Of a DNA stretch of 64,000 bases, positions 1,362 through 55,877 are shown piece by piece (position 1 is the stretch's first letter; each line of letters begins with the position of its first letter). The notes beneath the pieces were generated by a model. It searched no databases. It worked only from the letters and a program-made list of their open reading frames with translations, and was not told the DNA's origin. Origin of the DNA: Brachionus manjavacas. Its lineage: Eukaryota; Rotifera; Eurotatoria; Ploima; Brachionidae. The DNA lies in assembly GCA_019054805.1 (NCBI GenBank), contig JAHQIY010000016.1, positions 558,001-622,000 of the forward strand. Reading direction: 5' to 3'. The position numbers were made by a program, and so were the translations under genes.

Positions 1362-4300
1362 TTAGCTCGTGGCCGTGTGGTCAACATCGGATGTTTTTTT
1401 GATCAAATTTTCACTTGCATTGGACAACTTTTGAGGATTGTGTGGCTTGCGGCGCTTGTTTCGGTTGAAATCGCCACTGGGCAAATTGACCGAATGCTCG
1501 TCGTCCTCGTCTTCGTCCAAATTTTGCTCATAAGCCTCTTCATTAGGCTGTTCATAATCGTAGTCCTGGTCTTCGGCAAAATCTGTATTGTAGTGCATGT
1601 CGGCGTCATTGTTCTCTTCTTCGTTGTACTCCTGATAGGACTGGTCTTGGTTCTCGTCCTCGTCCTCGTAGCCCTCCTCGTCTTCGGTGCCGTGGCTCTG
1701 GGCCCCCGTTTGCACATTGGCAAGCAGGTTCAAAAAGTTGGTCTTGTCCGTCATCTTGTTGAGCTGTTCTAGAACGCCCTGAAACTTTAGGTTGGAGAGT
1801 CCGGCATTGAAGGAGGCGGCGCGAGAGTGCAGCGTGTTCGACAGGCTGGATATGTCGTTGAGACTGGTCGATTGGCTGCTGCTAGTGCTCTGCGTGTTCT
1901 TGTATCGGATCCTCATGCGGTGATTGTGGAACCAGTTGATTACTGTGCGCGTTTGAAGCCCGAGCTTGGCGGCCAGCTGCTGCATTTGGTTGACGGCCGG
2001 ATACGGGTCGTACTTGAACGCCTTCATCAGCTGGTCTTTCTGCTCCTCGCTGAATATGAATCGTCGCTTGGGCTTTTGCTGGTCGTGGGGCTCGGTCTCC
2101 TGGGTGCAGTTTTTCTTCTGCAGGTTTCTCTCCTCTTTCCACTCGGACAACTTGTCCAGCTTGATCGGATCGTTCAGCCACATGTACATGCGCAAGTAGG
2201 GCTCGCGGCCCTTTATGCTCAGCGTGTTCCACGGCTTGGGCTTGGAGAGCAGCTCGCTGACGGTGCCCTGCGACAAATTGAGCACCGCTTCGCCGAACAG
2301 CTTTTGCCCGATGTTGTTGTTCATCAAGGTCTCCTTGACTCGATTGGTGATCTCGTCCGTGTTGAGCTCGGCGACGCCGGACAGCGCCGATATGTCATAC
2401 GGAATTATGTTGATTTGCGTGTGAACGTGCGGCGTCTTGGCCTCCGAGTCGTTCGAACAGCTGTCGTTGACGCTTTTGGCCAAGTAAACATTTTGTATGT
2501 TCGCCAAGCTAGTGTTTCTGGCATTGGGGCTGAGTGTGGACACCAAATTGTTGTTCGAGTCGACGGCTCTTTTGTCCGCGTTGGCCACGGGCGTCTTGTA
2601 CTGGTTGGCCATTAGCTTTTTGATGGAGTCCGGGTCGTCGATGAACATCTGCATGCGGATAAACGGCTCGCGGCCCTTCTGAGTCAACATCACCCACGGT
2701 TTTGGCCGCGCCAGCAAATCGCTCACACTTCCCTGACTCAAGCCCAGAATGCATTCGCCAAACAAACGCTGGCTGATCGAAAACTTGCTCAACAGGTCCT
2801 TTACTTTCTTGACCAATTCGTCTGTGTTTATTTGAGAGTATTTGTCGAATTGGTCCTGGGAGACGGGCGGCAGCACGCACTTCAGCGGCTTGTTCGAGAA
2901 TGTGCTCTGTGTGGATGTGTTGAGAGAGGGCGATGGCGAGGGCGTCGACGTGGCTCGGCTGAACGCCTGTGACGGCATCATCTGTTGCTGAAACTGCTGA
3001 AATTGATGCATTTGCTGTTGCTGCTGCTGCTGCTGGTGTTGTTGGTGTTGGTGTTGGTGCTGTTGCTGATGCATGAACAAATTGCTTGCTTGGCTTTGAT
3101 TGAGCAGTGAGGTGAACTTTTTGCCAAATTGAGAGTTCAACAATGGCGTTAGTTGATTTAAATTGCCAAGTGCTAGTTGATTGGTGAGGCCTGTGTTGGG
3201 CAGTGTGCTAGGTTTAGTGGCGCTGGTAGTGGTGGTGGTGGTGGTGGAGGTGTTTGGCTCGAATTCGTTTGTGTTGGACGAGGTGTCTTCGTCGTCCGAG
3301 CTGGTTTCGTTTGAGTTGAGCTTTCTTTTTTTGGCGTTTTTGATCGTGAGGTCGAGCGCTGTGTCGTTCTCGTCCGAGTCGTCCTTTCGGCTGCACACCG
3401 GCGACATCAGAGGCGACGACTCCGAATTCGACGAGCTCGGCGACATCGGCGACGAAAAATTCTCGCTCTGATTATGCATTTTCTTCTGGGCATCGTACAG
3501 TATTTGAGCGATGCGCTCCAACGTGGCACTGTCCTCTTTGGTGCCGCTTGCGTTCAGTGCATACGTGTCTTTGTTTGCCTTCTTGGGGCTGATGGCTTTT
3601 AGCGAGTGTATGCTGTTGGCGTTCATGGACCAGGTGTGCATTTTGCGGTAGGACTCGCGGCCCTTTTCGGTCAGTTTGTCCCAGTGCTTTGGCTTGGATA
3701 GGAGCTCGCTGACGGTGCCCTGCGACAAGCCGAGCACGCACTTGGCGAATACGCGCTGTCCAATGTTGTGTGTGCCGAGCAGGTCGCGCACCTTTTGCGC
3801 CACATCAGCCGTGTTCAGCGGCTCGTAGGCCGAGCTGCTCGGCGATAGATTCGACGACGAGTTGAGCACGTTTTCGTCGTTGTCCGTTTCGTTGGACGAG
3901 TCGTACTCGTGGCCGTTGTCCGCCTCCAATTTAAGCTGCTTGGGCTCCGGCTTGTACGAGCAAGCCGATGATATGGAAGATGAGGATGACGAGGACGATG
4001 AAGAGCTGCATTTGCCTGCTTCTTTGGACATGTCGAGAAGAGTCTTTAGGTTGCTAGCTGCTTGACCATTGTTCAGTGACGGCGATCTCGAACGTTTCGC
4101 TAAATAAATAAAAAAAAATTTTTTTTTTGAATATTTTATTATAAAAATTTTAAAAAATTTTAAATTTTTTTTTTTTTTCAATCTTTCTCATATTTTTCAA
4201 GTAGCTTCTTATAATCTGATATTTAAAATAGGAAAATTAGACTGAACAAAGTGTCCATTCAATCCTTGGTTATTAGTCATGGAACAATTAGATTTGACAA

Positions 4301-18572: not shown

Positions 18573-18963
18573 GTCGCCAAGAAGTGAAGAAAAAAATTTT
18601 CTCTATTAATTTAAAGAGTATTTTGAAGCATCGAACATTTTTAGAGTTCATTTCCTCGGAAATAATTTATTGCCATAATTAAGAAAAACATTATTCGCCC
18701 AGAAAAAAAAGTCTTTCAAAAATCAAAATTTGATTTAATGATTTTTATTAAAATTAACTATTTAGAAAGTATATTTCGCAATCAGAATAATACTTCTATA
18801 CTCAAAGAAATTTTTTTTTCATTTTCAAATGAATTCTTTTGCTATTTTTGTTTAAATTTATTATTATTTAAGGAGTTCGGGTGAAGAAATTCATGATTAA
18901 AGATAACCATATCAGCAAATAAATTGATTGAATAAAAATTTTTAAAAAATTTTATTTTTTACA

Positions 18964-20313
18964 ATGAACTCCGCAGTGACTAAACAATCCAACATTGTTG
19001 AGATCGAAAATCAGTTTGTTCTTCGAATGCCCACAATAAAAGCTGAAAATGGGCTGTTGAAACCTCATCCAGCGACGGCTGCACTGCGTCAAGCCCTAGC
19101 GGAAGCTAAGGCCCGCGAGGATTCCATTTCGGATCCGTTGAAGGATCGCTTATCCATAGAATTAAACCCCGAAACTAGGAAAGGCCGCGTCAAGTTTGAC
19201 AATGAAATATTTGAGGCTAGATTAGTCGATTTACCTTGTGTAATAGAATCTCTTAAAACAACAGATAAGAAAGTATTTTACAAATCTGCAGATATTTGCC
19301 AAATGTTAGTCTGTAAGACCAACAATGACCCGTTCAGTAATAGCGAAGACGAAAAGGAAAAAGAAAAAAACCAAGCTGACTATCAGTTAAAAAAGTACCA
19401 GTGGCCGCATGGACTGGCACCACCACTCAAAAACGTCAGGCGTAAACGATTCCGAAAGTGTGCCAAAAAGAAATTCATAGACTATGTCGAGATCGAGAAA
19501 GAAGTGAAGCAGTTATTTCGAGCTGACCGTGAAGCAGTCAAAATTGACTATGAAGTGTGCATGGTCGAAGCGGACCCTGATGATGACAATGATGAAAGCA
19601 AAAATGTTGAGGCCAGGGATTATGATTCTTATGACGAGAGTGGTTACAAAGATAAATCAATGACCGAAGGATTTAAATCAAAGAGTATGATTGAGGACAC
19701 TAATATGTCCGACACCAATTATGATACTTCATCCATGCCTGCTCATAAAGTCAAGGTTCCAGACGACTCATCAAATATCAATCTTGTTGAAGAAAGCAAC
19801 GATGCCAGCAATTTGGATGCGTCATCGAATCGAACCAGCTTCAAGAATATATTTGTCAAAGAAGTGTTGGGAGATTTGAGTAGCTCGGATGAAAATGCCG
19901 ATGAAGACGACGATGAAGAAGAGGAAGAAGAAGAAAATGAGACAAAGCCAAAATCGATTGCAAGTGGCCTTTTTGGTGCAGATGATGATTCAATTTCAAA
20001 CTTTGAAGATGCAAAAACTGAGCAAAATAACTATGAAGAGTCGGATGTGGACAAGACCAAAATGGATGAGGATGAAGAATCACTTATGTCTCCGCCACAG
20101 AAGGATCCAAAGAGTGAACTAGCTTCTAAACTGAATAATTTAATGGAAGAGTTGAACAAAATACAGGAAGAAAGAAAGCGCAAAGAAATCGAAATAGAAC
20201 CCATTAACAATCCGGTGCTGAAAAATTATTTGACTTCTAAACTGAACAATTTGATCGAAGAGGAAAACAAAAAACAAATCCAAGTTGAAGAAATAAAAAA
20301 GCTACTTGAATAA
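18964..20313 (+). CDS. TAF7: TFIID subunit TAF7 (TAFII55)
   Basis: Intronless 449-residue protein. Residues about 13-175 form the TAFII55 N-terminal domain, with ENQFVLRMP, then ARLVDLPCVIESLKTTDKK and FYKSADICQMLV, and finally WPHGLAPPLKNVRRKRFRK. These are hallmark blocks of TAF7, the TFIID subunit that binds TAF1 and restrains its acetyltransferase activity. A long acidic linker follows (DEDDDEEEEEEE near residue 310). The C-terminal coiled coil contains two related segments, SKLNNLMEELNKIQ and SKLNNLIEEENKKQ. The start is the first ATG of the open frame and directly precedes the conserved region. A polyadenylation-like AATAAA-rich region follows the stop. Confidence 0.95.
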   Translation: MNSAVTKQSNIVEIENQFVLRMPTIKAENGLLKPHPATAALRQALAEAKAREDSISDPLKDRLSIELNPETRKGRVKFDNEIFEARLVDLPCVIESLKTTDKKVFYKSADICQMLVCKTNNDPFSNSEDEKEKEKNQADYQLKKYQWPHGLAPPLKNVRRKRFRKCAKKKFIDYVEIEKEVKQLFRADREAVKIDYEVCMVEADPDDDNDESKNVEARDYDSYDESGYKDKSMTEGFKSKSMIEDTNMSDTNYDTSSMPAHKVKVPDDSSNINLVEESNDASNLDASSNRTSFKNIFVKEVLGDLSSSDENADEDDDEEEEEEENETKPKSIASGLFGADDDSISNFEDAKTEQNNYEESDVDKTKMDEDEESLMSPPQKDPKSELASKLNNLMEELNKIQEERKRKEIEIEPINNPVLKNYLTSKLNNLIEEENKKQIQVEEIKKLLE

Positions 20314-21120
20314 AGTAAATAATGTGTATAAATCAATCATTTATAAAAAGAGTAGTTTTTTCTTTTTAAATTAATCTGGAAAAGAGCTTATTAAAAATTA
20401 AAAAATTATTATTCAAAAAAATCGGGCCATTTTCAATAATTGAGAATAGATTTATTTTAAATCAAAAATTATATTTAAATTATGTCACATTTTTTTAACT
20501 AGAAATATTTGAAGAATGAATAATCAATTTTTAAAAATTAAGTTATGAATAAGACTGCATAATATTCAAATTATTTTTTGATTAATTGGCAAACGTCTTT
20601 TTTAAAAATTTTCCATCGAAAAAATTTTAATTAAAAATTTTTGAATTTAAACTTATACTCTAGAAAAATTAATTAGAGCTATGGTCTAATTCAGTTTTGC
20701 AAAAAAATAATAATTTCATTTTTCAATTTCACAATAAATGATTTGATTAATAATTTAATTTTTAGTCTAAAATTGATAATATTGAAAATGTAGAAAAAGT
20801 AAACCTCGGTCAACAGAGTGTTTAGAGAATAAATTGATTAAATAAAAAGCAGCTATTAATTAGATTTTAATGTATAAAATTGAAATATATCTTCAACTTT
20901 GAATGAGATTATATTGAAAAATTAAAAATTAATGAAAAATCTCAGATAAAATCAAAGCTTTCACAAGTTCGGCCGCCAAGGATTTTTCTAAACAAACTGT
21001 TTGATCAAATAATCAAAAAAAAAATTAAAATTTTAAAAAAGAATTAGACAGATAAAAAATTATTAAAAATTAACTAAGAAAACAATCAAGTAAAAATTTA
21101 TATGTTCAAATTTAAAATAA
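20314..21120. other. AT-rich intergenic spacer
   Basis: No gene seen. The 33-bp string ending this stretch (AATTTATATGTTCAAATTTAAAATAAATAAATC region, about 21093-21120) recurs at about 21545-21578 just inside the duplicated module. Confidence 0.5.
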
Positions 21121-21650
21121 ATAAATCTATTAAATAATCAATAGTGATTTCTTTTTCTTTTATTTCTATTATTCTGGCAGCGGAGCAACATGTATAACCT
21201 TGTATTAAAATTAAAAACCTTCATTTTATTTAAAAGAAACATTCAATTTTGAAACATTAATAATGAGTAAAAAAATGTTTAAATTATATATTAGTTAATT
21301 AAATAAAATTAAAATGTATTTTCAAATAATTTTTAGCCACATGTAAATATGCGCTTAACTTTTAAAATATATTTGATCCTAAAAAGAATTTATTGTTCAA
21401 ATATATTTTAAAGTTTGATGTAATCAACAACTAAATGATCCGAGCTAAATCACGAAAAAATGCAATAATATGACCACAAAACGAAGTTATCTTCAGATTT
21501 AAATTATTTTATTCCATTAATATTATAATTTAGATAAACGCCGAAAATTTATATGTTCAAATTTAAAATAAATAAATCAAATAACTAAAATTCTTTTATT
21601 TAAAAATAATTAATTACAAATTTGACATAAAACATTTGATTGCATTTTTC

Positions 21651-21829
21651 CTATTGCTTGCATTTGCAGTTATCTTTTAATAAAGTTAAATTTAATTTTT
21701 ATTTATTTCATTAAGCATGAAGAACTTACCACAACATTTGGTTTCTTGACAACACTTGCAGTTACAATTGTCACATTGGTTTTCACAGTTGACACATTTG
21801 CAGGAGCATTTATCACAACAGTTGCACAT
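21651..21829 (-). CDS. metallothionein A, copy 1 (two exons)
   Basis: Minus-strand metallothionein of 40 residues with 16 cysteines and no aromatic residues: exon 1 is 21829-21730 and exon 2 is 21673-21651. It starts MCNCCDKCSCKC and ends DNCKCKQ, with abundant Cys-X-Cys and Cys-Cys pairs. Donor GTAAGT and acceptor TTAAAAG give a phase-1 intron of 56 bp at the same protein position as in the divergent partner. Metallothioneins bind Zn, Cd and Cu through cysteine-thiolate clusters in the cytosol. A TATA-like element (TATAAAAAGG on the minus strand, about 21913-21904) lies upstream. The length and Cys order do not match a family I can name. Confidence 0.85.
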
Positions 21830-21940
21830 TTTTGTTTTTAGAACTTATGATAATGTAATTTAACTTTTGAAATCGATTGAATGATATTTGAAAAAATTTT
21901 ATCCCTTTTTATACATGATTTTATTATTTTTTGGTTTTGT

Positions 21941-22142
21941 GCCGGGCGCAAAAATTTTAGTAACGAGTGCAAAATTATAAACACAAATAATTGGTATCGT
22001 GTGCAAAAAAGAAAATTTCTTTACATACGCATTTGATAAATAAAAACCAGTTTTGCAAATTTTGGTTAATTTGCACTCGAAACATCAAATTAAGATCAAG
22101 ATTTGCATCTCTTGAAGACCGAGTGCAAATTTTGCGCTCGGC
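21941..22142. promoter_or_regulatory. bidirectional metallothionein promoter with six MRE cores, copy 1
   Basis: The core of the metal response element bound by MTF-1 is TGCRCNC. Between the two ATGs I find six: TGCGCCCGGC (minus, 21950-21941), TGCACTCG (minus, 21971-21964), TGCACACG (minus, 22005-21998), TGCACTCG (plus, 22072-22079), TGCACTCGG (minus, 22127-22119) and TGCGCTCGGC (plus, 22133-22142). The first and last extend into the GGC flank of the full MRE. This predicts coordinated metal induction of both genes. Confidence 0.8.
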
Positions 22143-22248
22143 TCAAATAACATGCCAAATAGCATAAATACAAGCCAAAATTTTTTATTTTTTCATTCTT
22201 AAAAAAAATCAACTCAATTAGTCAAACAAAATCAATCAATAGATCAAA

Positions 22249-22428
22249 ATGCATTCCTGTAACTGTTGCGACAAATGTAAATGCAATTGCCAAAAGTGTG
22301 ATTGTTGCAAGTGCACATGTTGCCAAGATGCCAAATGTTGTGGTAAGTCTCATCGTCCAAAATCAAAATTTACCTTTTTTAACTCCAAAATTTTTACTAT
22401 TCTAGATTCTTGCAAATGCAAAGTATAA
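22249..22428 (+). CDS. metallothionein B, copy 1 (two exons)
   Basis: Plus-strand metallothionein of 38 residues with 16 cysteines: exon 1 is 22249-22342 and exon 2 is 22406-22428. It starts MHSCNCCDKCKCNC and ends DSCKCKV. The phase-1 intron (63 bp, GTAAGT...TTCTAG) sits at the homologous site in metallothionein A, so the two genes are paralogues from an inverted duplication. A weak TATA (CATAAATA) is at about 22163. It shares a 419-bp divergent promoter with gene A. Confidence 0.85.
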   Translation: MHSCNCCDKCKCNCQKCDCCKCTCCQDAKCCGKSHRPKSKFTFFNSKIFTILDSCKCKV

Positions 22429-22684
22429 TTGTTGAAAATGAAATTGTGAATTAGAAAATTTTTGTTAAAACTTTTTTTTGTTTACTGTAAAAACTTGGAA
22501 AAAATAAAAATCTTTGAACAAAAATTATTTTTTTATTTCTACTCAAGAGCTTAAAAATTGGGCTCGAATTTAATTAAATTTTGGAATTGAATCATGTCCC
22601 GGTTGAAAAATATCACGCAAGAAAATTTCTCGGTATTTCTTTGTTTTATTTATGAGAAAAAATTCCGAGATTCAGAAAATAAAA

Positions 22685-23434
22685 ATGGAAAAAAGTCGTT
22701 CGAAAAAAGAATTGTTTTAGTAAAGGTATAAATAGAATAAAATAAGAAATTAATGTTTTTAAATAATATTATTTTAAGGCCGATCAAAAAGAGAAAGAAG
22801 TAAATTTTATTTTTAATTCAATTACTGAGTAAGGCATTGTTATTTAGAGAAGAGATTATTCCAATTTTCCTGCACCTTTGGACCAAGTTAAACTTGAACC
22901 TGATGATTTACTTGAAGAAATAGCCAGAATTTTGACTATCAAGAAAATCGAAGAACCATCAAATAATGTGTGCTATAGTAATAAGCAAAAAAAATGGGTT
23001 CAAATTCCTAAAAAAGAAGATTCTCACATATATTTGAGTTTTGAGGGAAATTATTACTTCAAGAATTCACAAGATGCCACAAGCTATTTACTTGAAAAAG
23101 ATAAAATTGAGGCTAAAAGACGCTTTTTATGATCCGAAGATAGTTGATGATTTTATTGATATAGATAATGTGAGAAAATTCCGGGTTTTGAAAAATGATT
23201 TTAATTTTGCTAGCCGTTGTTCTCAGACAAAGAGTTTAGCTACCAGAGAAGATGAATCTCAGACTGATGCCGCTAAAAAGATAAATTTTTCTGGTCATGT
23301 TAGTCCATATTTAATAAGTAAAATTTATCAAGAGGACTTTGCCAATAAAGCCAAGCTTAGTCAAAAGCGCTTAGGAACAAAAACAACAGATAGTTTGTCT
23401 GAATCCAAATTTAACCCGCAATTGTTAGATGCTC
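22685..23434 (+). pseudogene. DNAI1: truncated DNAI1 fragment, copy 1
   Basis: 5' half of the dynein intermediate chain gene copied with the metallothioneins. Equivalent exons lie at 22685, 22779-22799 and 22848-23434. Exon 1 has A6 instead of A7 at 22703, which frameshifts it. The main exon has T5 instead of T7 at 23124, turning KRRFFYDPK into KRRFL-stop. Homology ends abruptly at GATGCTC (23434), before the WD40 repeats, and runs into unrelated AT-rich DNA. It cannot encode a functional intermediate chain. If the homopolymer differences are read errors, it would still be truncated. Confidence 0.85.
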
Positions 23435-25289
23435 TCAACAATTATATTTTTTGTACTAAATGATAATCATTTTTCTATTGTATTTTAGTGTACAAATTTT
23501 AAAAAATTTATTGCTATTCTTAAACTAAGTCTCTCTCTAATTTCTTTCATGTGAATTTGGGACTGGTATTGGTATGGTTGCGCCTTAACAAATTTTCGAC
23601 AAAGTAACAATGGAACGTTCATCATAAACAGCGCCACTTATCCCAACATTAAAAGGCTACGAACTAGACAACTATTTAGACTAGCTTGATACAACTTACC
23701 AAGCATATCTTTAATTTGTAATAGAATTAGAAACCTGATTTTTGTTCCTGGTACATAATTTACTTAATCAGTGTAAGACTCCAAAGAAAGGTGCTTTAAA
23801 TAACCTTAGTTACTCTCGTCCAATTTCAACAACTCTTAGGAACTTCTTTTAAATAAAATGGATTGCTATCAATTTGGTTTAAAAAAGTAAGCTTTAGATA
23901 AGCTTTCGATAAGCTTTTTAACTTTTTATACTTAAAGATTTTACAGATCCATTTAGCATTGATTGAAGGAAAAATAATTTAAAAATTGACGTTTTCATGG
24001 CAGACTCATTCGTTTGTGTGTATAGATCTCTTTTAGATAAAAAAAGGAAAATAAAAATATATATAACGTATAGGCTCGATATTAGGACACGTCAAACAAA
24101 CAAACTTCACCTCACTTCACTTTAACACTATACAAAATTGAATATTTTTTAAAATTTAATGTCAACATTAGTGACATGCCGCTCTAATTATCAGTAAAAT
24201 GTTTTATAGCTTTTTTATCAGGCAACTTGAAGTTCATGATCATGACCACATGATCAAAACTTAAAAGTTTAATTTTGTATGGCAAAATTACAAAATATTG
24301 ATTAAGATTTTGTTTTACTTCATTTAAAAATTCTTATAATTTTCTTCATAATTAAAGATTTAACAAATCATGTTTAATAAAGTTAAGCCATTTATTATTA
24401 AAAAAGTTCATAAAAATTCCTTTTTTTTAAATCTAAAAATAAAAATTTTGATTTGAATTTTACATTTGATCATTTTGAACTTCAATTTGCCTTTTTATCA
24501 TAATAAAATTTAAAAAATTAACTTTTTTAAAACAAGATAATGGAGAAACGAAAGCAGTTTGAAGGTCGGACAAAATTGATAGAGCCTTTTAATAAACATG
24601 TTGGATGGAAAATTTCTCTGGTTCGGCTAAGAAAAGTAAAAATATTTACTGAATTCCGCTTTTGTTTTCTTCGAAATTTAAAAAACTTTAAAGTAAAGAT
24701 TTATAAAATTTAATTAAATTTAAATTTATTTTAAAATAACCAAAATTCAATTTTTTCTGATAATCTTAATCATCTATGCATAGTGAGTTTTTTTTATGTA
24801 CTTAACTTCTATTCATAGACTTCCAAGCAAATAAACAAACAAAAATATTTCGTCGAATTTTTCTTCCTAATTAGAAGCTTAAATTAGTTCAAAACTTAAT
24901 TTAATTTAGAAAATTTTTCAAAAAATATTTAAAAAAAACTAAATAAATGTGGCTAAAATGAATTAATTTAAATTAAATTAACGAAGCAAGATAGTTTTAC
25001 AATATTTTCTTTATTTTTAGGGCATTTTTACAAATAATAAATGAATTTTTACAAATACAACATTTTAAATACCAAAAATTTTTTTTAAGTAATTAACTTT
25101 TTGACTTAAAAAAAAAAAGTTATTGAATAACTTTTTGTCGCTAGATTTAAAAGAATTTTTATGTTATTTGTTCCAATTTTGTCAAAATGAAAGCGACTTC
25201 TTCGAAAAATAATAAAGAATGCTATAATGAATAATAAAGCTCTTAAATATATTTTTGTCACATTTTTTATTATTATTATATTATATTAT
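23435..25289. other. spacer with faint RT remnant
   Basis: Mostly AT-rich unique DNA following the copy 1 breakpoint. About 23780-23885 (plus) translates as PKKGALNNLSYSRPISTTLR and then a CYQFGF-like string, resembling the N-terminal reverse-transcriptase motifs (YRPISL, QFGFR) of LINEs. It is too decayed to classify. Confidence 0.4.
24540..24635 (+). other. orphan exon-like open frame
   Basis: A 32-codon frame starting with an ATG and ending at a GTAAAAAT donor. Residues include RTKLIEPFNKHVGWKISLVR, which has ordinary protein composition in otherwise noncoding DNA. I find no continuation exon, so it may be a stranded first exon or a transposon piece. Confidence 0.2.
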
Positions 25290-25904
25290 TATTAAAGTAG
25301 AAATAGCCGAAGCCTTGAATAATCAATTTAAGTCAATCTTTGTAAACGAAGACACATTGTCAATGCCTTAATTTGCCAATACAACAGAAAAAAATTGAGA
25401 CGATGATCGCCTTACTAATATACTGACCATCGAATTACTGATTTTGATTAATTGCTAGTATTTACTCAAAATGTTGTAAAATCTAGTCGACACAAAAGCA
25501 ATGGGCAGCGAGCCATTTAATCTTAAATCGATTAATGAGCGATCAACAAGCGAGATTTGTCTCTGATAAATCATGTACAACCAACTTACTAGGAGCATTC
25601 GAAGCCATCGCATACGAACTGTCTAAAGACAAACCTTATGCGTAATGTACCTCGATTTAGCCAAGGCGTTTGACAAAGTCCCTCACGTCAGACTCTTAGC
25701 TAAAATGAGAGCGTAAGAGATAAATGGCACTCTACTGGAGTCTTACAAGGAGAGTCCACATCAGCCCGGCAAAACATAACAAGCGGAGTACCACAAGGAT
25801 CTGTAAGTGGTCCAATTTTCTTCATAAGCTTCATCAAAGACCTGTCTGGTGTTGTAAAATACATTTTCAAGATGAACGCAGACGATAGTAGAATTAAAGC
25901 AAAT
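25290..25904 (+). mobile_element. degraded CR1-like LINE, RT part, left segment
   Basis: Plus-strand pieces read AEALNNQF-SIFVNED, YLDLAKAFDKVPHVRLLAKM, SGVPQGSVSGPIFFISFIKD and KMNADDSRIKA. These are RT motifs in LINE order, with the catalytic FADD decayed to NADD. There are many stops and frameshifts. The segment is interrupted at 25904 by a nested insertion and resumes at 26524. Confidence 0.75.
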
Positions 25905-26510
25905 TATTATTATTATTATCATTATTATGCTCTTAGGCTGAGGTCATCATTCGACCACTTGCTCAACGCCCCGTAAAATAAGGTGGCGTTGTATTTTTAA
26001 AATTTCTCAGATAAAAAATAAAAAAAATTGTAAAAAAAGAATTGAATAAATCAGTAAAAAAAGAATAAAATTTAAGTATATAAAAAAAAAAAAAACAAAC
26101 AAAAAATGAAAAATAGTTCAATTATTTTCAGACATTTAAATTAGAGTAAAATAATAACATAGAAATTCCATGTTTAATTTATCCTATTGTATCTTAAAAG
26201 ATCGTAAATGCTCTCTGTATGGCGCTCCTGCTTATTGAACGCTTTTTTTAGTTCTTCGAAAACTGTGTTATTTTTCTTGGACGTCTCAAATTCCAACTCA
26301 GTAACATACCCATAATATTACATTTATCTGTCAGTTCCATCCTGCTCTCATACTCTTTTTCATTTAGTAAATCAAGAGAATTACTTATATAATCCTTGTC
26401 ATTCTCATCGTTTAATAGCTCTTTTATGATTAATTTAGTGAATTCATTTGCTAAAAGCTTTTCAAAAAATTCTATATTCATTTGTTTGAGCCTAACATCA
26501 GTCTTCAGTT
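25905..26510 (-). mobile_element. nested retro-insertion with 13-bp target-site duplication
   Basis: This 606-bp insertion splits the older LINE. It is flanked by identical AATTAAAGCAAAT at 25892-25904 and 26511-26523. On its minus strand it ends in an (ATA)n/(AAT)n tail (about 25925-25905), as LINE-mobilised sequences do. The preceding 3' region (CCCCGTAAAATAAGG area) may be a LINE 3' end. About 29 bases from its 5' end an ATG opens a frame of roughly 100 codons. Confidence 0.75.
26173..26481 (-). pseudogene. frameshifted ~100-codon acidic/helical ORF inside the retro-insertion
   Basis: The frame starts MNIEFFEKLLANEF and runs to DKCNIMG. A +1 shift near 26314 then continues the protein-like sequence as YVTELEFETSKKNNTVFEEL and ends near LLRYNRIN. 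Composition suggests a helical, charged protein. I do not recognise it. It could be a retrocopied host transcript or LINE ORF1 material. Confidence 0.4.
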
Positions 26511-26523
26511 AATTAAAGCAAAT

Positions 26524-27060
26524 ATGGAAACTCGCAAGATGAGATAGCAACTACATAAAGACATCGACAATGCAGTTGAATTGTGTTACATGACGTGAAA
26601 CATGAATTTAAAGAAAAAATATTTCAAAGCTATTAGCTTTGGTCATAACAAAGAAACAGTCTATACGTTTAAAACAACAAATGAAGAGCATAAGCTAACA
26701 GAAAGCGAGCTTGAACTTCTATGTACAATCCAACATGAAATGGAAATACCAAGAACAAGTTAGCCACAACAAAGCATCAAAAAAGTTAGGCATGCTTAAA
26801 AAACACATTAATAAGTCTGTGGAAGAGGCTTTACACAAACCATAAGATTTCATTTAGAGTTTGCGGTCCCAGAATGTTCACCACAAATGTCATAGGAATA
26901 GCCTTGCATGAAAAAATTCAACGTAGAATATCAAAGGTGCCAACTTTAACTAGGAATATTAACTATGCACAGCGACTAGTTAAAATTAATCTCCCCACAC
27001 TCGAAACAAGAAGAAAAAGAGGAAATCTGATGGTCAATTTGAAAATGCTTAAAAAAAATA
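26524..27060 (+). mobile_element. degraded CR1-like LINE, RT part, right segment
   Basis: Continuation of the interrupted LINE. It includes a decayed thumb region (NMNLKKKYFKAISFG) and C-terminal QRLVKINLPTLETRRKRGNL, the recurring 'LGLTTLE.RR.RGDL' block of CR1-type elements. No open frame survives. Confidence 0.7.
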
Positions 27061-27570
27061 AAATGATTTCTAAACCTTCTGAAACCTATACTTCAATTGA
27101 ATATTTATCAGTCAAATGCCTTTTATTTTTTTAAGTCCAACAAAACAAAAAATAATTAATTTAATAAAGAAAATTTGAATGAATTTTTTGAAAATATTTT
27201 CTTAAGCCAAAAAAAACTTTGATATTATAATTAAACTGAATTTTTTGCCGCTAAAGTACTAAATTTATTTACTTTTTATTTATTTATTTATTGAAAATTA
27301 AGTAATTATTTATTAAAAATGTAATTTATCTTAATATTTAAAACCCAAATGTGAGAAAAAAAATAAAATTTTCATGCATATGCTTACGATAACTAACTTT
27401 AATATTTGATTGTGTGCTTTTATAATTGTCTTAATCCATTTTTTTAGATTACATATTATATATAAATAATTTTTACAACTTAAAAATAAATTTTAATTAA
27501 AATATTAAGAAAAGGAAAAAAATATTCGAATTCATTCATTCAAATTTTTCTTACAAAAAATGTTGTTTGT

Positions 27571-27813
27571 ACAGTATGTCACAAAAAATTAGAATCAAGT
27601 TGAAAAAACCTAAAACTCTACTACCTAAAAATCTGACAAAATGGAGAAAAAATAGGTAAAAATAAACTAACTGATCAACAAACATGCCAAATTGCATGTT
27701 TTTTGAAAAATCAGACAAAGACTGAAAGAGAAATAGACGAGTTAACGAAATAATGAACAAAAAACAACCAAATAGAAAAAAAAATTTGATTCTTACTTTT
27801 TGTGACATACTTG
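27571..27813. mobile_element. short TIR element (Tc1/mariner-like MITE)
   Basis: The left end reads CAGTATGTCACAAAAAATTAG and the right end, reverse-complemented, reads AAGTATGTCACAAAAAGTAAG. This gives terminal inverted repeats of about 25 bp with two or three mismatches enclosing about 190 bp. The internal reading frame on the minus strand is hydrophobic low-complexity sequence and not a transposase. Ends of the form CAGT..GTCACAAAAA are typical of Tc1/mariner relatives. A TA precedes the left end but none is evident on the right. Confidence 0.6.
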
Positions 27814-28440
27814 ACAGAAATATTCATTACATCATTTAATCAACATTTATGAAAAAAAAATTTTAAAATCAATTTTTAATTAGAAGTTTTCAATATAATA
27901 AATAAAATGAATAAATCTATTAAATAATCAATAGTGATTTCTTTTTCTTTTATTTCTATTATTCTGGCAGCGGAGCAACATGTATAACCTTGTATTAAAA
28001 TTAAAAACCTTCATTTTATTTAAAAGAAACATTCAATTTTGAAACATTAATAATGAGTAAAAAAATGTTTAAATTATATATTAGTTAATTAAATAAAATT
28101 AAAATGTATTTTCAAATAATTTTTAGCCACATGTAAATATGCGCTTAACTTTTAAAATATATTTGATCCTAAAAAGAATTTATTGTTCAAATATATTTTA
28201 AAGTTTGATGTAATCAACAACTAAATGATCCGAGCTAAATCACGAAAAAATGCAATAATATGACCACAAAACGAAGTTATCTTCAGATTTAAATTATTTT
28301 ATTCCATTAATATTATAATTTAGATAAACGCCGAAAATTTATATGTTCAAATTTAAAATAAATAAATCAAATAACTAAAATTCTTTTATTTAAAAATAAT
28401 TAATTACAAATTTGACATAAAACATTTGATTGCATTTTTC

Positions 28441-28619
28441 CTATTGCTTGCATTTGCAGTTATCTTTTAATAAAGTTAAATTTAATTTTTATTTATTTCA
28501 TTAAGCATGAAGAACTTACCACAACATTTGGTTTCTTGACAACACTTGCAGTTACAATTGTCACATTGGTTTTCACAGTTGACACATTTGCAGGAGCATT
28601 TATCACAACAGTTGCACAT
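28441..28619 (-). CDS. metallothionein A, copy 2 (two exons)
   Basis: Exons 28619-28520 and 28463-28441. The sequence is identical to the gene at 21651-21829 as far as I compared: 40 residues, 16 Cys, 56-bp phase-1 intron. Confidence 0.85.
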
Positions 28620-28730
28620 TTTTGTTTTTAGAACTTATGATAATGTAATTTAACTTTTGAAATCGATTGAATGATATTTGAAAAAATTTTATCCCTTTTT
28701 ATACATGATTTTATTATTTTTTGGTTTTGT

Positions 28731-28932
28731 GCCGGGCGCAAAAATTTTAGTAACGAGTGCAAAATTATAAACACAAATAATTGGTATCGTGTGCAAAAAA
28801 GAAAATTTCTTTACATACGCATTTGATAAATAAAAACCAGTTTTGCAAATTTTGGTTAATTTGCACTCGAAACATCAAATTAAGATCAAGATTTGCATCT
28901 CTTGAAGACCGAGTGCAAATTTTGCGCTCGGC
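28731..28932. promoter_or_regulatory. bidirectional metallothionein promoter with six MRE cores, copy 2
   Basis: Second copy of the MRE-rich divergent promoter, with all six TGCRCNC cores preserved at positions 6790 bp higher than in copy 1. Confidence 0.8.
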
Positions 28933-29038
28933 TCAAATAACATGCCAAATAGCATAAATACAAGCCAAAATTTTTTATTTTTTCATTCTTAAAAAAAATC
29001 AACTCAATTAGTCAAACAAAATCAATCAATAGATCAAA

Positions 29039-29218
29039 ATGCATTCCTGTAACTGTTGCGACAAATGTAAATGCAATTGCCAAAAGTGTGATTGTTGCAA
29101 GTGCACATGTTGCCAAGATGCCAAATGTTGTGGTAAGTCTCATCGTCCAAAATCAAAATTTACCTTTTTTAACTCCAAAATTTTTACTATTCTAGATTCT
29201 TGCAAATGCAAAGTATAA
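29039..29218 (+). CDS. metallothionein B, copy 2 (two exons)
   Basis: Exons 29039-29132 and 29196-29218. The sequence matches the gene at 22249-22428: 38 residues, 16 Cys. The DNAI1 start codon lies 258 bp downstream on the same strand. Confidence 0.85.
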   Translation: MHSCNCCDKCKCNCQKCDCCKCTCCQDAKCCGKSHRPKSKFTFFNSKIFTILDSCKCKV

Positions 29219-29475
29219 TTGTTGAAAATGAAATTGTGAATTAGAAAATTTTTGTTAAAACTTTTTTTTGTTTACTGTAAAAACTTGGAAAAAAATAAAA
29301 ATCTTTGAACAAAAATTATTTTTTTATTTCTACTCAAGAGCTTAAAAATTGGGCTCGAATTTAATTAAATTTTGGAATTGAATCATGTCCCGGTTGAAAA
29401 ATATCACGCAAGAAAATTTCTCGGTATTTCTTTGTTTTATTTATGAGAAAAAATTCCGAGATTCAGAAAATAAAA

Positions 29476-32400
29476 ATGGAAAAAAGTCGTTCGAAAAAAA
29501 GAATTGTTTTAGTAAAGGTATAAATAGAATAAAATAAGAAATTAATGTTTTTAAATAATATTATTTTAAGGCCGATCAAAAAGAGAAAGAAGTAAATTTT
29601 ATTTTTAATTCAATTACTGAGTAAGGCATTGTTATTTAGAGAAGAGATTATTCCAATTTTCCTGCACCTTTGGACCAAGTTAAACTTGAACCTGATGATT
29701 TACTTGAAGAAATAGCCAGAATTTTGACTATCAAGAAAATCGAAGAACCATCAAATAATGTGTGCTATAGTAATAAGCAAAAAAAATGGGTTCAAATTCC
29801 TAAAAAAGAAGATTCTCACATATATTTGAGTTTTGAGGGAAATTATTACTTCAAGAATTCACAAGATGCCACAAGCTATTTACTTGAAAAAGATAAAATT
29901 GAGGCTAAAAGACGCTTTTTTTATGATCCGAAGATAGTTGATGATTTTATTGATATAGATAATGTGAGAAAATTCCGGGTTTTGAAAAATGATTTTAATT
30001 TTGCTAGCCGTTGTTCTCAGACAAAGAGTTTAGCTACCAGAGAAGATGAATCTCAGACTGATGCCGCTAAAAAGATAAATTTTTCTGGTCATGTTAGTCC
30101 ATATTTAATAAGTAAAATTTATCAAGAGGACTTTGCCAATAAAGCCAAGCTTAGTCAAAAGCGCTTAGGAACAAAAACAACAGATAGTTTGTCTGAATCC
30201 AAATTTAACCCGCAATTGTTAGATGCTCAAGAACAAAAGGTTCAACAAAATGAGCGATTTAAAAAATCAGCCATGATTGTAGAGAGAATGATAAGTCAAA
30301 ATAATTTACAAGATATCTTAATTGATTACAAGCATTGGGATGATGAAGCAGACAATTTTCGTATAGAAGGAAGTTTACTACCCTTATGGAAATTTTCTAA
30401 CAATTTAACCAAGCGAAGAGCTATAACAGCAATTTCGTGGAGTCCTTTTTACAGCGATTTATTCGCAGTAGCAACAGGATCATGTACTTTTTTGTTTGAA
30501 TTTTTTAATTAAATAAAATCCTTTTTTTAGATAATTTTCTAAAAAAAACTTCTGGCTCAATCATTTGTTTTACTCTCAAAAACCCTAATAATCCTCAATT
30601 TAAAATAGACACACCTTTGAGTTGTATGACTATTCAATTTAATCCTCGGGAACCATATCTATTAGCTGCTGGATTCTACGACGGTTCGGTGTGTGTATAC
30701 GATCTTAGATTGATAAATAAACCCAAAGAGACTAAATATTATTATAAATCTGTAGCCAAGCACTATGGACCAGTTTGGCAAGTAAATTCATTAAAATAAT
30801 AGACATATCACTTACCTAAAGTTTCCAAGGTACAATGGCTACTACCAAATAATGAACAATATGAAAATTTTGTTTCGGTTTCTGCAGATGGTAGAATTTT
30901 TAATTGGGAATTAAAAAAAGTATTACTTTGTTAATTCAAAATTAAAATTTAAATAATTAAATTTCAGAATCTTTTGGTTGGAACTGAGATAAATTTGCTA
31001 AAAGACTTGGCAAAAGATCCAAAAATGAAATTCAGTGATGTGTTTAAACAAACTCAATGTAATTTTTTTCTCAAATTTAAATTCTGCTCAATAAACCGAA
31101 TATTCCATCGCCTTAAATAATGATGATTTAAAAATTTATCCTAAGAGACTAAAAAATACCTTAATAATTAGACAAAAAAAAATTATTTTAATAGTAATGA
31201 TTAATTTGGTTAAGACCATAAATAATAAAGTCATGACTAAAAATCCAAAATATTAGTATGGCCACGATCATAACAGAAAGAGTGATCTATCTGTCTAATG
31301 TTTCTCAAATAATATAAAAAAGAGTGAAACTTTTCATTACTATATGATTAGTTTTGAGATATCAAGTCAAAATTTTCCTTTTAAATGATTAAAAAAATTT
31401 AAATTAAATAATCCAAAATTCAATTTTTAATAATCAATTTTAAAAATTTTGAGATATTCTACAAAAAAAGGATTATTTTTTTGAATTTATAATTTGTCTC
31501 ATTTTAAATCAAATGATTTTTTTGAATATTTTTCTGTTAATCAATAAACCAATTCACTTGATTTTTAAAAAAGGTTATCAATCTGCTTATCAATTTATTT
31601 AAATATAATTTGGGAGAGACTCCCAGGCAGTTTGGAATGGAACTTAGTCCTCCCTTTCAGCCTCTTGCTTGAAGAAACAAAAAAAAATTAAAAAGTTTGA
31701 ATTTAAAATCAAAATAAAATAGAAACAAAAGTGTTTTGTTAGCTTGGAATTAAAAGTTGAAAGATATTGTTAAGTGATGACCAAATGTACTTTTTAAAGA
31801 TTTGCATAAAAAATTATAGAATAAAAAATTATAAAATAAAAAATTATAAGTAAAGTTAGTGTTAGTTTAGTATTTTTGAATAATTAGATCGAATAAAGTT
31901 TTGAATCTAGGATTTGTTGTTTGGACGTAATCGTTTAGCTCTTCTTGGATTAGGCTGTGGCTCCGTTTGGCCGAAATGAAATTCAATCTGCTTATCAGGT
32001 GAATCGAAATTAGTGTTAAAAATGTTTGAGTTTAATTTTGACTTTTCTAATATAGATGCTTAATTCTAACTTTTTTTTTGGTCAATTTCATTAGTCGTAT
32101 CAAATACCGTTTAATAATTAGATTTTATTAGATTTTTTTTTTTTTTTTAACTTGTTTATTGAATTTTTATGAGACTTAAAATTTAATAAAAAAAATTAAA
32201 TTACCATTTGTGAATATTATGTAAATAAAATATTGAATTGTTGTATCGTCTTAGTCAAGCTTGACTCTGTCCATTGAAATTTCTTAAGCTAAATAGTTAT
32301 GGTTTATCTAATTTTATAAAGAATTATCTAATTAAAGATGCCAAAATTGAATTGAAAATTTAGAAAAAAAAGGAAAATTTCAACTTTTTTTAGGATTTTA

Positions 32401-33709
32401 TCAGAATTATAAATATTTTCATTTTGATACAAAATTTTAAATTCTGAATTTTAAATTTTGAATTTTAAATTAAATTTTAAATTTTAACTTCTTTCAAAAA
32501 TTTAAAAAAATTTAAATTTTATTTCATATAATGAGTTTAAAAAAATATAAATAAATTTTTACTAAAATTTAATTTTCATTTGAAAAATAAAATTTAAATT
32601 TTTTTAAATTTTTGAAAGAAGTTTGATAAATTTAATATTATTAATGTAAGAAAATTAAAAAATTGAAAATATTGACTTGTTTGTGTAAGACTAATTTTAA
32701 AAGAATTTATTATTTTTTTTTATATTAAATTTTTTGTAAATAACTTTTCATAGCTTAATAAATTATTGTAGGAAAAGGATATTTTCACGTTTCTTAATAA
32801 TTTATTAATTTATAATTTTGAACGCTTGTTAAACTTAACAAATTTAACTTGTATAGAATAATTTAAATTTAAACTGTGTATCAAAGATTGTGGAACATGC
32901 ATAGATTTCAATTCTCAGGAAGTTGATTTGTATATTGTTGGTACTGAAGAAGGCAAGGTGCTAGAGTATTCTTCGTTGCACAAGGAGAAAATTTTGACTA
33001 TTTTTGATGCTCATAGTTTACCAATCTATTCAATCAAATGGAATCCGTTTTTCAAACGAATTTTTATAACTTGTTCGGCTGATTTTTCAGTAAAAATTTG
33101 GGATCATAGATACAAGTAAACGAAACGATTTTTTTTTCATAAAATTACATTTATTTTTTATAAAGAAATCCACTAATAGTTTATGAGCTAGGTGCTCCAG
33201 TGTGTGATGTTCAATGGGCTCCATTTTCATCTACAGTTTTTGCAGCTTTAACTTTAGATGGGAACATTCACATATATGATATTTATTTGAATATAGAAAA
33301 ACCCTTGTGTGTTCAGAATGTAATTTTTAAAAAAAAGCGCAGAATAACACATGTTTGCTTTAGTCCTTTTTTTCCTATTCTGATTGTGGGAGACGAGAAG
33401 TTTGTTTTCAGTTTTGCCTTAATAAAGAATTTCATTTTTTTTAATAGAGGTTCAATATCGAGTTTTAAGCTTTCGCCCAATTTAAGATCCCTTCAAAGAG
33501 ACAACACACTAAATTCGATCTCTATACTGAACAAGGAGACATTCGAACAGGACAAAATAAGAAACATTTTATCCCAAGAGGCTGAATTGAATCCAGAATT
33601 AGTAGAGACAAATCGAAAGAACTATAAATTTGAGAGAATTTATGTGAAAAAAACCGAGGTAAACCAGGACGAAGACGAAGAAGAAAAAAATCCAAAAAAG
33701 AAGAAATAA
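29476..33709 (+). CDS. DNAI1: axonemal outer-arm dynein intermediate chain 1 (DNAI1), nine exons
   Basis: Exons: 29476-29517, 29571-29591 (21-nt microexon), 29640-30483, 30531-30781, 30830-30919, 30968-31058, 32887-33115, 33166-33399 and 33448-33709. All junctions are GT-AG and in phase, giving 687 residues (human DNAI1 is about 699). The N-terminal half has the family landmarks CSQTKSLAT, ESQTDAAKK and LLPLWKF. The C-terminal half is a WD40 domain: TAISWSPFYSDLFAVATGSY, YLLAAGFYDGSVCVYDLR, GPVWQVQW, SVSADGRIFNWEL, LYIVGTEEGKVLEY, TCSADFSVKIWDH and VGDEKGSISSFKLSPNLR. The protein assembles dynein arms on ciliary doublets. Intron 6 is unusually long (1828 bp) and carries an insertion. The first exon choice rests on phase and the absence of stops; an upstream ATG at 29385 spliced over 43 bp is possible. 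Confidence 0.93.
31593..31982 (-). mobile_element. 390-bp SINE-like insertion in DNAI1 intron 6, 15-bp TSD
   Basis: The segment is flanked by perfect copies of TCAATCTGCTTATCA at 31578-31592 and 31983-31997. It has no protein-coding potential. Read on the minus strand it starts with GC-richer sequence (GGCCAAACGGAGCCACAGCC) and ends with an (AAAT)-type tail, consistent with target-primed reverse transcription. I do not see clear tRNA A/B boxes, so the SINE label is tentative. Confidence 0.6.
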
Positions 33710-41859: not shown

Positions 41860-43014
41860 TTTTGACTTTTTTTTCTATTTTATGCGCTAGCTCTATTAAA
41901 TAAAAATTAAAAAGGAAGTTGACGTGCTAAATATTTTTATTTCAAAATAAAGCATAAATAATTTATAAATTAGCTACGAAGAACAAGATTTTTTTAAGTA
42001 AAAAAAAAATTATGTTTCTTAATTTACTATTTAAATGCTTTGCGAAAAATTTTGAAAATTTTTTATTCAAATAAGAAATAATTTATTAAAATAAAGACCA
42101 ATTATTACTATTTTTAATCAAAGTTCCCTCTAATTTGATTCACCTTATGATCTTGAAATTGACAAACTTTTTTTTCGTGACAACTATGTGACTTTCGTAG
42201 AAATATAATTTTTAGCAAAATTATGATGAAATATTTTGCTATCAAGTCAAGAATACACATAAGAATTTGTTTAAAATTAATTTCGAATCTAAACATGTCT
42301 AGACATACCAATTCAAAATCAAACAAAAATTTTTAATCCCAATTCTTTAAAATTGACAAAACTTAAAACTTTTTAGAAAAAAATTCAAACCCTTTACTTT
42401 GGATTTTAGACAGTTCTTATTGTGTCAGTTTTGGTGTCACCTAAAGTTGAGTACAAAATCATGTCAGAAAAAGTAAGATTTTAATAAATGAACAACAACT
42501 AATTGCTGTGATTTAAACTACTATTGCAGTTAACCCATTTATTTTTTATTAAAATCGTAGAAAACAAAAAATTATTTTTACTCTAATTTATTCAAATTTA
42601 TTAGTTTGCTCTTCAACATCCCATTCGGTTAAAGCAGCATAATTTGTCTGTAGATGGCTTTGAGTGAACCGATGAAAAAGACAAATTTTATTTCTTATAA
42701 ATCATCTAAAAATTTGAAGAATTAGTGATACTTAAATCAAAAATTTTGCTCTTTTAAAAAAAATTATTGCTAAAAAATGCATTGTTAAGTTTTGGCAAGA
42801 CAAGTTTAAAGGCATTTGAGCAAAAATTCTGCATTGCATTCAACTCTTGCAATTACAAAGTAAGCTTTACGAAAAAAAAAAAAAAAAAATAAAAAACCAA
42901 AATATCAAGCATATAAATACATGAAACCAAATAAAATATTCTAGAAAAGAATCAACATAAATTTCATCTTTTGAAGAAAAAAAAAAACAAAAAACTAACT
43001 GTTCTAAACCAACA
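41860..43014. other. divergent intergenic region, with one coding-like patch
   Basis: This lies between the minus-strand coiled-coil gene and plus-strand SF1. Most of it is AT-rich. At 42603-42680 the minus strand has a protein-like frame, FHRFTQSHLQTNYAALTEWD then VEEQTNKFE-stop. I cannot connect it to other exons or name it. Confidence 0.4.
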
Positions 43015-46769: not shown

Positions 46770-47278
46770 TGTCGCTTGAGAGGAAAAAGATTGACTACAA
46801 TGATCTTTACATTGACCAAGAAGAAACCCAATCAATAATTGAAGCTGACCTAAAAGACAATGATGAAAATCTGATGCCAAAAACGCCTGGATATCAGCCA
46901 TCAAATCTCAATGACGTAATGTCAGAAATTAGTCCTCAAGACCTCAAAACTTCAGTGTTAGAAGACAGTTTGGTAAGCCATTTAAACGATCTTCTACCAA
47001 TAAGTCAGAGACCTGTAAATGTCCTCTCAAATGATCAGAATGAGACTGAAGCTTTTTTCCAAACAAAAAATCAAATCAAGAGATTTCCCGAATTTGATCC
47101 AAATGAAAAAGAGCTAACCGAAAATGAATCAAAGAAACCATTAGTTGTATTAGAAAATCAAAACGACAGTACCTTCGAGTCTGAATCAAACAGTTCAACA
47201 ACTGAATGTTCAATTCAAGTAGATCAATCATCTAACAAAATTGGTCAGCAAACTGCCAGTCAAGAAAATTTAGAATGA
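46770..47278 (+). pseudogene. LINE-A ORF1, C-terminal part (copy 1)
   Basis: Open frame from the truncation point to TGA at 47276-47278, encoding the acidic C-terminal half of ORF1 (ERKKIDYNDLYIDQEETQ onward). The ATG at 46700 is in flanking DNA and not the element's own start. The stop overlaps the ORF2 start as ATGA. Confidence 0.8.
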
Positions 47279-50087: not shown

Positions 50088-50330
50088 ACTATTTAAACAT
50101 GAGCCACATGTAACAATCTTTTCCAATTTTATATATTCTTAATTTTCATTTATTTAGCTTATTTACTTTTTTTAATTCTTTTTTTTTTTTTTTTTATCTT
50201 ATTTTATTAACTTTAATTTTATTTTTATTTTATTTTATTTCATTTTTATTTTATTTTTTTAATTTTTAACTTATTCTGAAGGAGCTCTAGCTCGGTACAG
50301 AAAACAAATAAATAAATAAATTATATCAAA

Positions 50331-55656: not shown

Positions 55657-55877
55657 TCCATTTATTTATTTATTTATTTGTTTTCTGTACCGAGCTAGAG
55701 CTCCTTCAGAATAAGTTAAAAATTAATAAAAATAAAATAAAAATGAAATAAAATAAAATAAAAATAAAATTAAAGTTAATAAAATAAGATAAAAAAAAAA
55801 AAAAAAAAAAAAAGTAAATAAGCTAAATAAATGAAAATTAAGAATATACAAAATTGGAAAAGATTGTTACATGTGGC

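What the first reader, a model, noticed from the sequence alone, without database searches (positions are those of the whole stretch)
21651..22428. Head-to-head metallothionein pair sharing one MRE-dense promoter
Two 38-40 residue proteins with 16 Cys each have the same phase-1 intron position, are divergent over 419 bp, and share six TGCRCNC cores. This is a compact bidirectional metal-inducible unit. The Cys arrangement does not fit a family I can name, so it may be an undescribed metallothionein family.
Basis: partly seen in the sequence, partly recalled or inferred. Interest (0 to 1): 0.8.

Follow-up and report, generated by a model that had tools for sequence, protein, structure and literature searches.

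The report
Mirror-image metallothionein gene pair, duplicated
Two tiny cysteine-rich genes, probably for metal-binding proteins, sit back to back around a shared control region with six likely metal-response sites, and the whole unit appears twice in the assembly, which may show an animal gaining copies of its metal-detoxification genes.

Summary
Two spliced genes encode 38- and 40-residue proteins with 16 Cys each, diverging over 419 bp, each with one phase-1 intron at the matching place. All six TGCRCNC cores there are TTTGCRCNCG decamers. The decamer occurs 12 times in the window: six here, six in a second copy of the unit 6,790 bp away (0.41 expected).

That 2.3-kb block (99.8% identical) gives four metallothionein-like genes in two head-to-head pairs. 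Copy 1 also carries a broken 5' part of a DNAI1-like gene that continues beyond copy 2. The two intergene halves align and MRE distances to the ATGs roughly mirror, so the pair probably arose by inverted duplication of one gene with its promoter.

Best explanation: metallothioneins, probably of Zn/Cd type, induced through an MTF-1-like factor. No Pfam, NCBIfam or credible PDB match was found; recalled family patterns do not fit. The host may be a rotifer; I found no rotifer metallothionein gene described. Expression and metal binding are untested, and assembly error is not excluded.

The parts
22249..22428 (+). MT-A, copy 1: exon 1 22249-22342, intron 22343-22405, exon 2 22406-22428; 38 aa, 16 Cys
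21651..21829 (-). MT-B, copy 1: exon 1 21829-21730, intron 21729-21674, exon 2 21673-21651; 40 aa, 16 Cys
21943..22140 (.). Array of six TTTGCRCNCG sites: 21943-21952(-), 21964-21973(-), 21998-22007(-), 22070-22079(+), 22120-22129(-), 22131-22140(+)
   Evidence: expected 0.41 in the whole window
21903..21913 (-). TATA box of MT-B (TATAAAAAGGG)
   Evidence: scan; sequence
22163..22170 (+). TATA-like element of MT-A (CATAAATA), in the position that aligns with the MT-B TATA region; not an exact TATA match
   Evidence: sequence; mirror alignment; no exact TATA[AT]A here
22503..22508 (+). AATAAA, candidate polyadenylation signal of MT-A
   Evidence: sequence
21595..21600 (-). AATAAA, candidate polyadenylation signal of MT-B
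   Evidence: sequence
21113..23434 (.). Duplicated block, copy 1: MT pair plus a truncated, frameshifted 5' part of the DNAI1-like gene
27903..30228 (.). Duplicated block, copy 2 (99.785% identical), continuous with the rest of the DNAI1-like gene
28441..28619 (-). MT-B, copy 2 (no difference from copy 1 in the coding region)
29039..29218 (+). MT-A, copy 2 (no difference from copy 1 in the coding region)
28733..28930 (.). Second six-site MRE array

Best explanation
The locus holds two paralogous metallothionein genes in mirror orientation. They arose by inverted duplication of one gene together with its MRE/TATA promoter, and the pair was then copied again, giving four genes. Under excess zinc or cadmium an MTF-1-like zinc-finger activator would bind the six TTTGCRCNCG sites and drive transcription outward from two facing core promoters. 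The two small proteins, presumably cytosolic, each with 16 Cys, 6 or 7 Lys and no Phe, Trp or Tyr, would then chelate the metal in thiolate clusters. Shown here: the gene models, paralogy, MRE clustering, mirror homology, and the duplicated block as assembled. Inferred: expression and splicing, MTF-1 binding, metal preference, protein function, and that the block is a true duplication.
For: Gene models with matching phase-1 introns. MT-A and MT-B are related beyond shared cysteines: score 174; 0 of 1000 full shuffles reach it in either direction; with Cys positions kept, 1 of 1000 and 0 of 1000. 15 Cys columns are shared, and 6 of the 15 use different codons, so Cys is kept through silent change. 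The MRE decamer occurs 12 times, all in the two intergenes. One site contains TTTTGCACTCG, identical to that stretch of the human MT2A MRE-a probe printed in PMC9820605 (passages). Inverted repeats pair exon with exon (52 nt at 81%, 44 nt at 70%, 18 nt at 83%) and proximal MRE with proximal MRE (21 nt at 86%) (27 pairs, 25 listed, many of the others short and AT-rich). The promoter halves align: local score 83, largest of 500 shuffles 72; 0 of 1000 window pieces from outside both copies reach the observed local or global score. Second copy.
Against: No transcript, protein or metal data could be consulted. Mirror spacing alone is modest evidence (P 0.009 or 0.002 depending on the range allowed), and only 2 of the 3 mirrored MRE pairs are also mirrored in orientation. 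In the global promoter alignment 1 of 500 shuffles reached the observed score, and 2 of 500 (local) and 1 of 500 (global) window pieces did; that draw did not exclude the two copies, and the repeat that excluded them gave 0 of 1000. MT-A has no exact TATA box. PMC10047149 (passages) disputes that TGCACACG is a true MTF-1 motif in human cells. No MTF-1 gene could be looked for, because no genome is held.
Confidence: 0.82

Rival explanations
1. The genes are real metallothioneins, but the second pair is an assembly duplication rather than two loci.
For: The copies are 99.785% identical; over 2,326 aligned positions they differ by one substitution 7 bases from the left edge and three homopolymer-length gaps of 1, 1 and 2 bases, the kind of difference that sequencing error leaves.
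Against: The flanks outside the copies are unrelated apart from one 19-base match, so two independent wrong joins would be needed. Copy 1 ends abruptly inside the DNAI1-like gene.
Confidence: 0.25
2. The two genes have separate promoters and the mirrored layout is only a relic of inverted duplication; there is no functional sharing of MREs.
For: Each half has its own proximal MRE and TATA-type region at a similar distance from its ATG.
Against: The six MREs lie 108 to 301 bp from both ATGs. A single element between head-to-head genes controls both in C. elegans (PMC12239621, abstract and passages).
Confidence: 0.3
3. The proteins are not metallothioneins but other small Cys-rich proteins, for example secreted disulfide-rich peptides.
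For: No Pfam or NCBIfam model matches.
Against: The first Cys is at residue 2 or 4, so there is no hydrophobic signal sequence before it; CC, CxC and Lys are abundant and there is no F, W or Y; the MRE array fits metal regulation.
Confidence: 0.06

Closest known systems
C. elegans mtl-2 / T08G5.1 head-to-head pair with one HZA enhancer (PMC12239621; abstract and passages)
   Same: A metallothionein gene in head-to-head orientation with a second metal-induced gene, a metal-response enhancer between them, and start codons about 280 bp from it.
   Different: There mtl-2 is the metallothionein and T08G5.1 an uncharacterized protein, and the element is a single HZA bound by HIZR-1. Here both genes are paralogous metallothionein-like genes around six MTF-1-type MREs.
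Vertebrate MT promoters with MREs bound by MTF-1 (human MT2A; PMC9820605, passages)
   Same: TGCRCNC elements; one site here shares TTTTGCACTCG with the human MT2A MRE-a probe.
   Different: Each gene has one intron, against the typical three exons and two introns stated in PMC4101491 (passages).
   Same: Small Cys- and Lys-rich proteins.
   Different: 58 to 440 of 1000 full shuffles reach the alignment scores; the recalled nematode pattern is absent.
Acanthocephalan metallothionein-like sequences of Dentitruncus truttae (PMC12274423, passages)
   Same: From Acanthocephala, close relatives of rotifers, the group to which this host may belong; the paper reports that two such sequences are most similar to P. 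laevis and rotifer sequences.
   Different: Those two were identified as kalirin-like and as a member of MT family 11, and the paper says that a metal-binding protein of the 'metallothionein' family was absent from the other organisms it analysed, which included rotifers. Their sequences were not seen, so relationship could not be tested.

Membership tests
Metallothionein (functional class) | Short, very Cys-rich chain with CC, CxC and CxxC motifs and no aromatic residues | tested here: met
   38 and 40 aa, 16 Cys each; 4 CC/7 CxC and 3 CC/6 CxC; no F, W or Y (one His in MT-A)
Metallothionein (functional class) | Binds several metal ions in thiolate clusters | not testable with these tools
   needs recombinant protein
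Metallothionein (functional class) | Metal-responsive promoter (MREs present; response itself) | tested here: inconclusive
   Six TTTGCRCNCG sites are present; the response is untested
Named metallothionein families (11 of the 15 Binz-Kagi patterns, recalled from memory) | Family signature pattern present | tested here: not met
   0 of 11 recalled patterns match either protein; the other 4 patterns were not tested and the patterns were not checked against a source
Pfam and NCBIfam models | Match to a curated model | tested here: not met
   0 Pfam families at E up to 1; 0 NCBIfam at E up to 10. HMMER's filters may hide very Cys-rich matches
Bidirectional (head-to-head) gene pair | Divergent genes with start sites under 1 kb apart | tested here: met
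   419 bp between ATGs; transcription starts themselves not mapped
Bidirectional (head-to-head) gene pair | Co-expression from the shared region | not testable with these tools
   no expression data

The most novel reading that the evidence does not exclude
This is an undescribed metallothionein family of rotifers (or a wider gnathiferan group), built as a palindromic two-gene metal-response cassette that amplifies as a unit, so that each copy event adds two co-induced metallothioneins at once.
Probability: 0.45. Interest if true: 0.58.

Novelty: new variant of a known kind. Interest (0 to 1): 0.45.

Why it matters
If the host is a rotifer, these would be the first rotifer metallothionein genes described at gene level that I could find; the searches behind that were made, in an open-access library only, with capped listings. 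Rotifers are used as ecotoxicology animals, so a defined metal-response gene and promoter would be useful as a biomarker. A mirrored pair copied as a unit also gives a testable case of how metal tolerance can grow by gene copy number.

Tried and rejected
Rejected: chance. No sign of a bacterial, phage or plasmid source: no confirmed relative in viral contigs (195 pattern matches, none confirmed), genome contigs (62 pattern matches, none confirmed), phages (MT-B only) or plasmids (MT-A only). Not useful: PDB search with MT-A, no match; with MT-B, one match to a Ly6 protein at E = 1, taken as chance. A literature search for printed peptide motifs found 0 papers. Searches for head-to-head metallothionein genes: 413 papers hold 2 of 3 terms, 20 listed; it gave PMC12239621; 178 papers, 20 listed; 139 papers, 15 listed; by title none concerns head-to-head animal metallothionein genes, one is about a cyanobacterial metallothionein regulator. 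MTF-1 with rotifer: 4 papers, listing only, none about rotifer MTF-1 by title and abstract start. Rfam at gathering threshold found nothing in the window. The full rotifer spliced leader at up to 3 mismatches found nothing; only a 14-base part matches. No structure prediction was run, since metallothioneins without metal are not expected to give useful models.

Full report
Observation. The region 21651-22428 holds two genes with one intron each. The plus-strand gene (here MT-A) has exon 1 at 22249-22342, a 63-nt GTAAG..AG intron and exon 2 at 22406-22428; the product has 38 residues with 16 Cys. The minus-strand gene (MT-B) starts at 21829, has a 100-nt first exon, a 56-nt GTAAG..AG intron and a stop ending at 21651; the product has 40 residues with 16 Cys. 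Both introns are phase 1 and split the same Asp codon after a Cys pair. The ATGs are 419 bp apart. Each gene is followed by AATAAA (22503-22508 on plus, 21600-21595 on minus; read). Chance is not an explanation: the densest 30-residue stop-free stretch has 14 Cys, while 50 dinucleotide shuffles of the window reach at most 7. Splicing is modelled from the sequence and no transcript was seen.

Metal-response elements. The intergene holds six TGCRCNC cores, with 0.106 expected from the rest of the window. All six are TTTGCRCNCG. This decamer occurs 12 times in 64 kb, six here and six in the second copy, and nowhere else; 0.41 are expected and the largest of 100 shuffles is 3. PMC9820605 (passages) gives the MRE consensus as TGCRCNC, or NTGCRCNCgGCCc in longer form, and prints a human MT2A MRE-a probe containing TTTTGCACTCG, which is present in the site at 21964-21973. 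The two proximal sites here continue as CGGCAC and CGGCTC. Against this, PMC10047149 (passages) argues that the JASPAR motif TGCACACG is not a true MTF-1 motif in human cells.

Mirror structure. The two proteins are paralogues: the local score is 174, which 0 of 1000 full shuffles reach in either direction, and which 1 of 1000 and 0 of 1000 shuffles reach when Cys positions are kept. Fifteen Cys columns are shared in the alignment and 6 of them use different codons. Inverted repeats pair exon 1 with exon 1 (52 nt at 81% and 44 nt at 70%), exon 2 with exon 2 (18 nt at 83%), and the proximal MRE regions (21 nt at 86%); the call lists 25 of 27 inverted pairs, and many of the rest are short AT-rich matches. 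The two halves of the intergene align in order: MRE, proximal MRE, TATA region and leader. The local score is 83 and the largest of 500 shuffles is 72; in the global form 1 of 500 shuffles reached the observed score. In one search, 2 of 500 (local) and 1 of 500 (global) window pieces also reached it, but that draw did not exclude the two copies; with both copies excluded, 0 of 1000 pieces reach the observed score (best 69 against 83 local, 55 against 65 global). MRE distances to the two ATGs are 113/108, 134/119 and 168/169; random placement matches this symmetry with P 0.009 (sites between the TATA regions) or 0.002 (whole intergene), and 2 of the 3 pairs are also mirrored in strand. MT-B has TATAAAAAGGG at 21913-21903. 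MT-A has only CATAAATA (22163-22170) at the matching place and no exact TATA match. The simplest history is inverted duplication of a single metallothionein gene with its promoter.

Second copy. The block 21113-23434 recurs at 27903-30228, 99.785% identical over 2,326 aligned positions, with one substitution 7 bases from the left edge and three homopolymer-length gaps of 1, 1 and 2 bases. The coding regions and MREs of the two pairs do not differ. Copy 2 runs on into a DNAI1-like gene: a frame that crosses the right breakpoint and a frame near its C-terminal end both match axonemal dynein intermediate chain 1 best in the PDB (E 6e-35 and 2e-22). I did not build that whole gene model. Copy 1 contains only a truncated and frameshifted 5' part of that gene. 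Flanks outside the copies are unrelated apart from one 19-base match. Copy 1 is therefore probably the derived one. There are four metallothionein-like genes in the window if the assembly is right. The few, mostly homopolymer, differences leave an assembly error possible, although unrelated flanks on both sides would require two wrong joins.

Where it comes from. No genome is held for the window. Window GC is 29.0%; the monogonont rotifers newly assembled in PMC11954553 span 24.95-31.14% GC, B. plicatilis is given as 26.75% and Proales similis as 45.51% (passages). A 14-base exact match to part of the rotifer spliced leader GGCTTATTACAACTTACCAAGAG (printed in PMC3795323, passages) lies at 23690-23703; 1 of 100 shuffles has such a match at up to 1 mismatch. 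The 14-mer was chosen after seeing it in the sequence, so this is weaker than the number suggests, and the full 23-mer at up to 3 mismatches is absent. A rotifer is my best guess, not a result.

Relation to known families. No Pfam match at E up to 1, no NCBIfam match at E up to 10, no PDB match for MT-A at E up to 10, and only a Ly6 match at E = 1 for MT-B. None of 11 family patterns recalled from memory fits. Within each protein the two halves look alike around a CxCC...C motif; this was not tested against shuffles. The review PMC4101491 has no mention of rotifers (term search). Papers with metallothionein, rotifer and Brachionus number 47, of which 25 were listed; I opened passages of four papers from that list (PMC12268377, PMC13307446, PMC12274423, PMC7310846) and saw no rotifer metallothionein gene described. 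Further searches are 1 paper; 176 papers with 2 of 3 terms, 15 listed. The closest paper, on an acanthocephalan transcriptome (PMC12274423, passages), reports two metallothionein-like sequences most similar to P. laevis and rotifer sequences, and also says that a metal-binding protein of the 'metallothionein' family was absent from the other organisms it analysed, rotifers among them. Those sequences were not seen.

How it likely works. Excess Zn or Cd activates an MTF-1-like factor, which binds MREs lying 108 to 301 bp from both starts and drives both genes; the products chelate the metal. A working precedent for one metal enhancer driving two head-to-head genes is C. elegans mtl-2/T08G5.1, where deleting a single HZA element strongly reduced zinc activation of both (PMC12239621, abstract and passages). 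The element, the factor and the partner gene differ there. Expression, MTF-1 binding and metal binding are inferred here.

Verdict. Real, more extensive than reported, probably an unnamed metallothionein subgroup in a neat mirrored and duplicated layout. It is a new variant of a known kind and not a new kind of system.

Noticed in passing
window 22848-23434 and 29640-33709: A DNAI1-like axonemal dynein intermediate chain gene continues beyond copy 2 (matches in two frames; whole gene model not built), and a truncated, frameshifted 5' part of it lies in copy 1.
   Followed up: partly
window 23690-23703: 14-base exact match to part of the rotifer spliced-leader sequence, not followed by GT; perhaps a decayed copy.
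   Followed up: partly
window 46771-50321 and 55664-59021: A LINE-like element with endonuclease-type and reverse-transcriptase-type reading frames present twice in inverted orientation at 97-99.5% identity, with frames that look like Helitron parts between and beyond them (element names are from recall, not searched).
   Followed up: no
window 21093-21137 and 21544-21588: A 45-bp direct repeat (93%) spans the left breakpoint of copy 1 and recurs inside the block, possibly involved in forming the duplication.
   Followed up: no
window 23435-27902: The stretch between the two copies holds broken reverse-transcriptase-like frames, perhaps a decayed retroelement (recognised by eye, not searched).
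   Followed up: no
window 1362-4187 (-), 18946-20313 (+), 42961-43491 (+), 44095-45021 (+): Neighbouring genes: a protein with three CUT domains and a homeodomain (CUX-like), a TAF7-like protein (TAFII55_N), and SF1-like splicing factor pieces.
   Followed up: no
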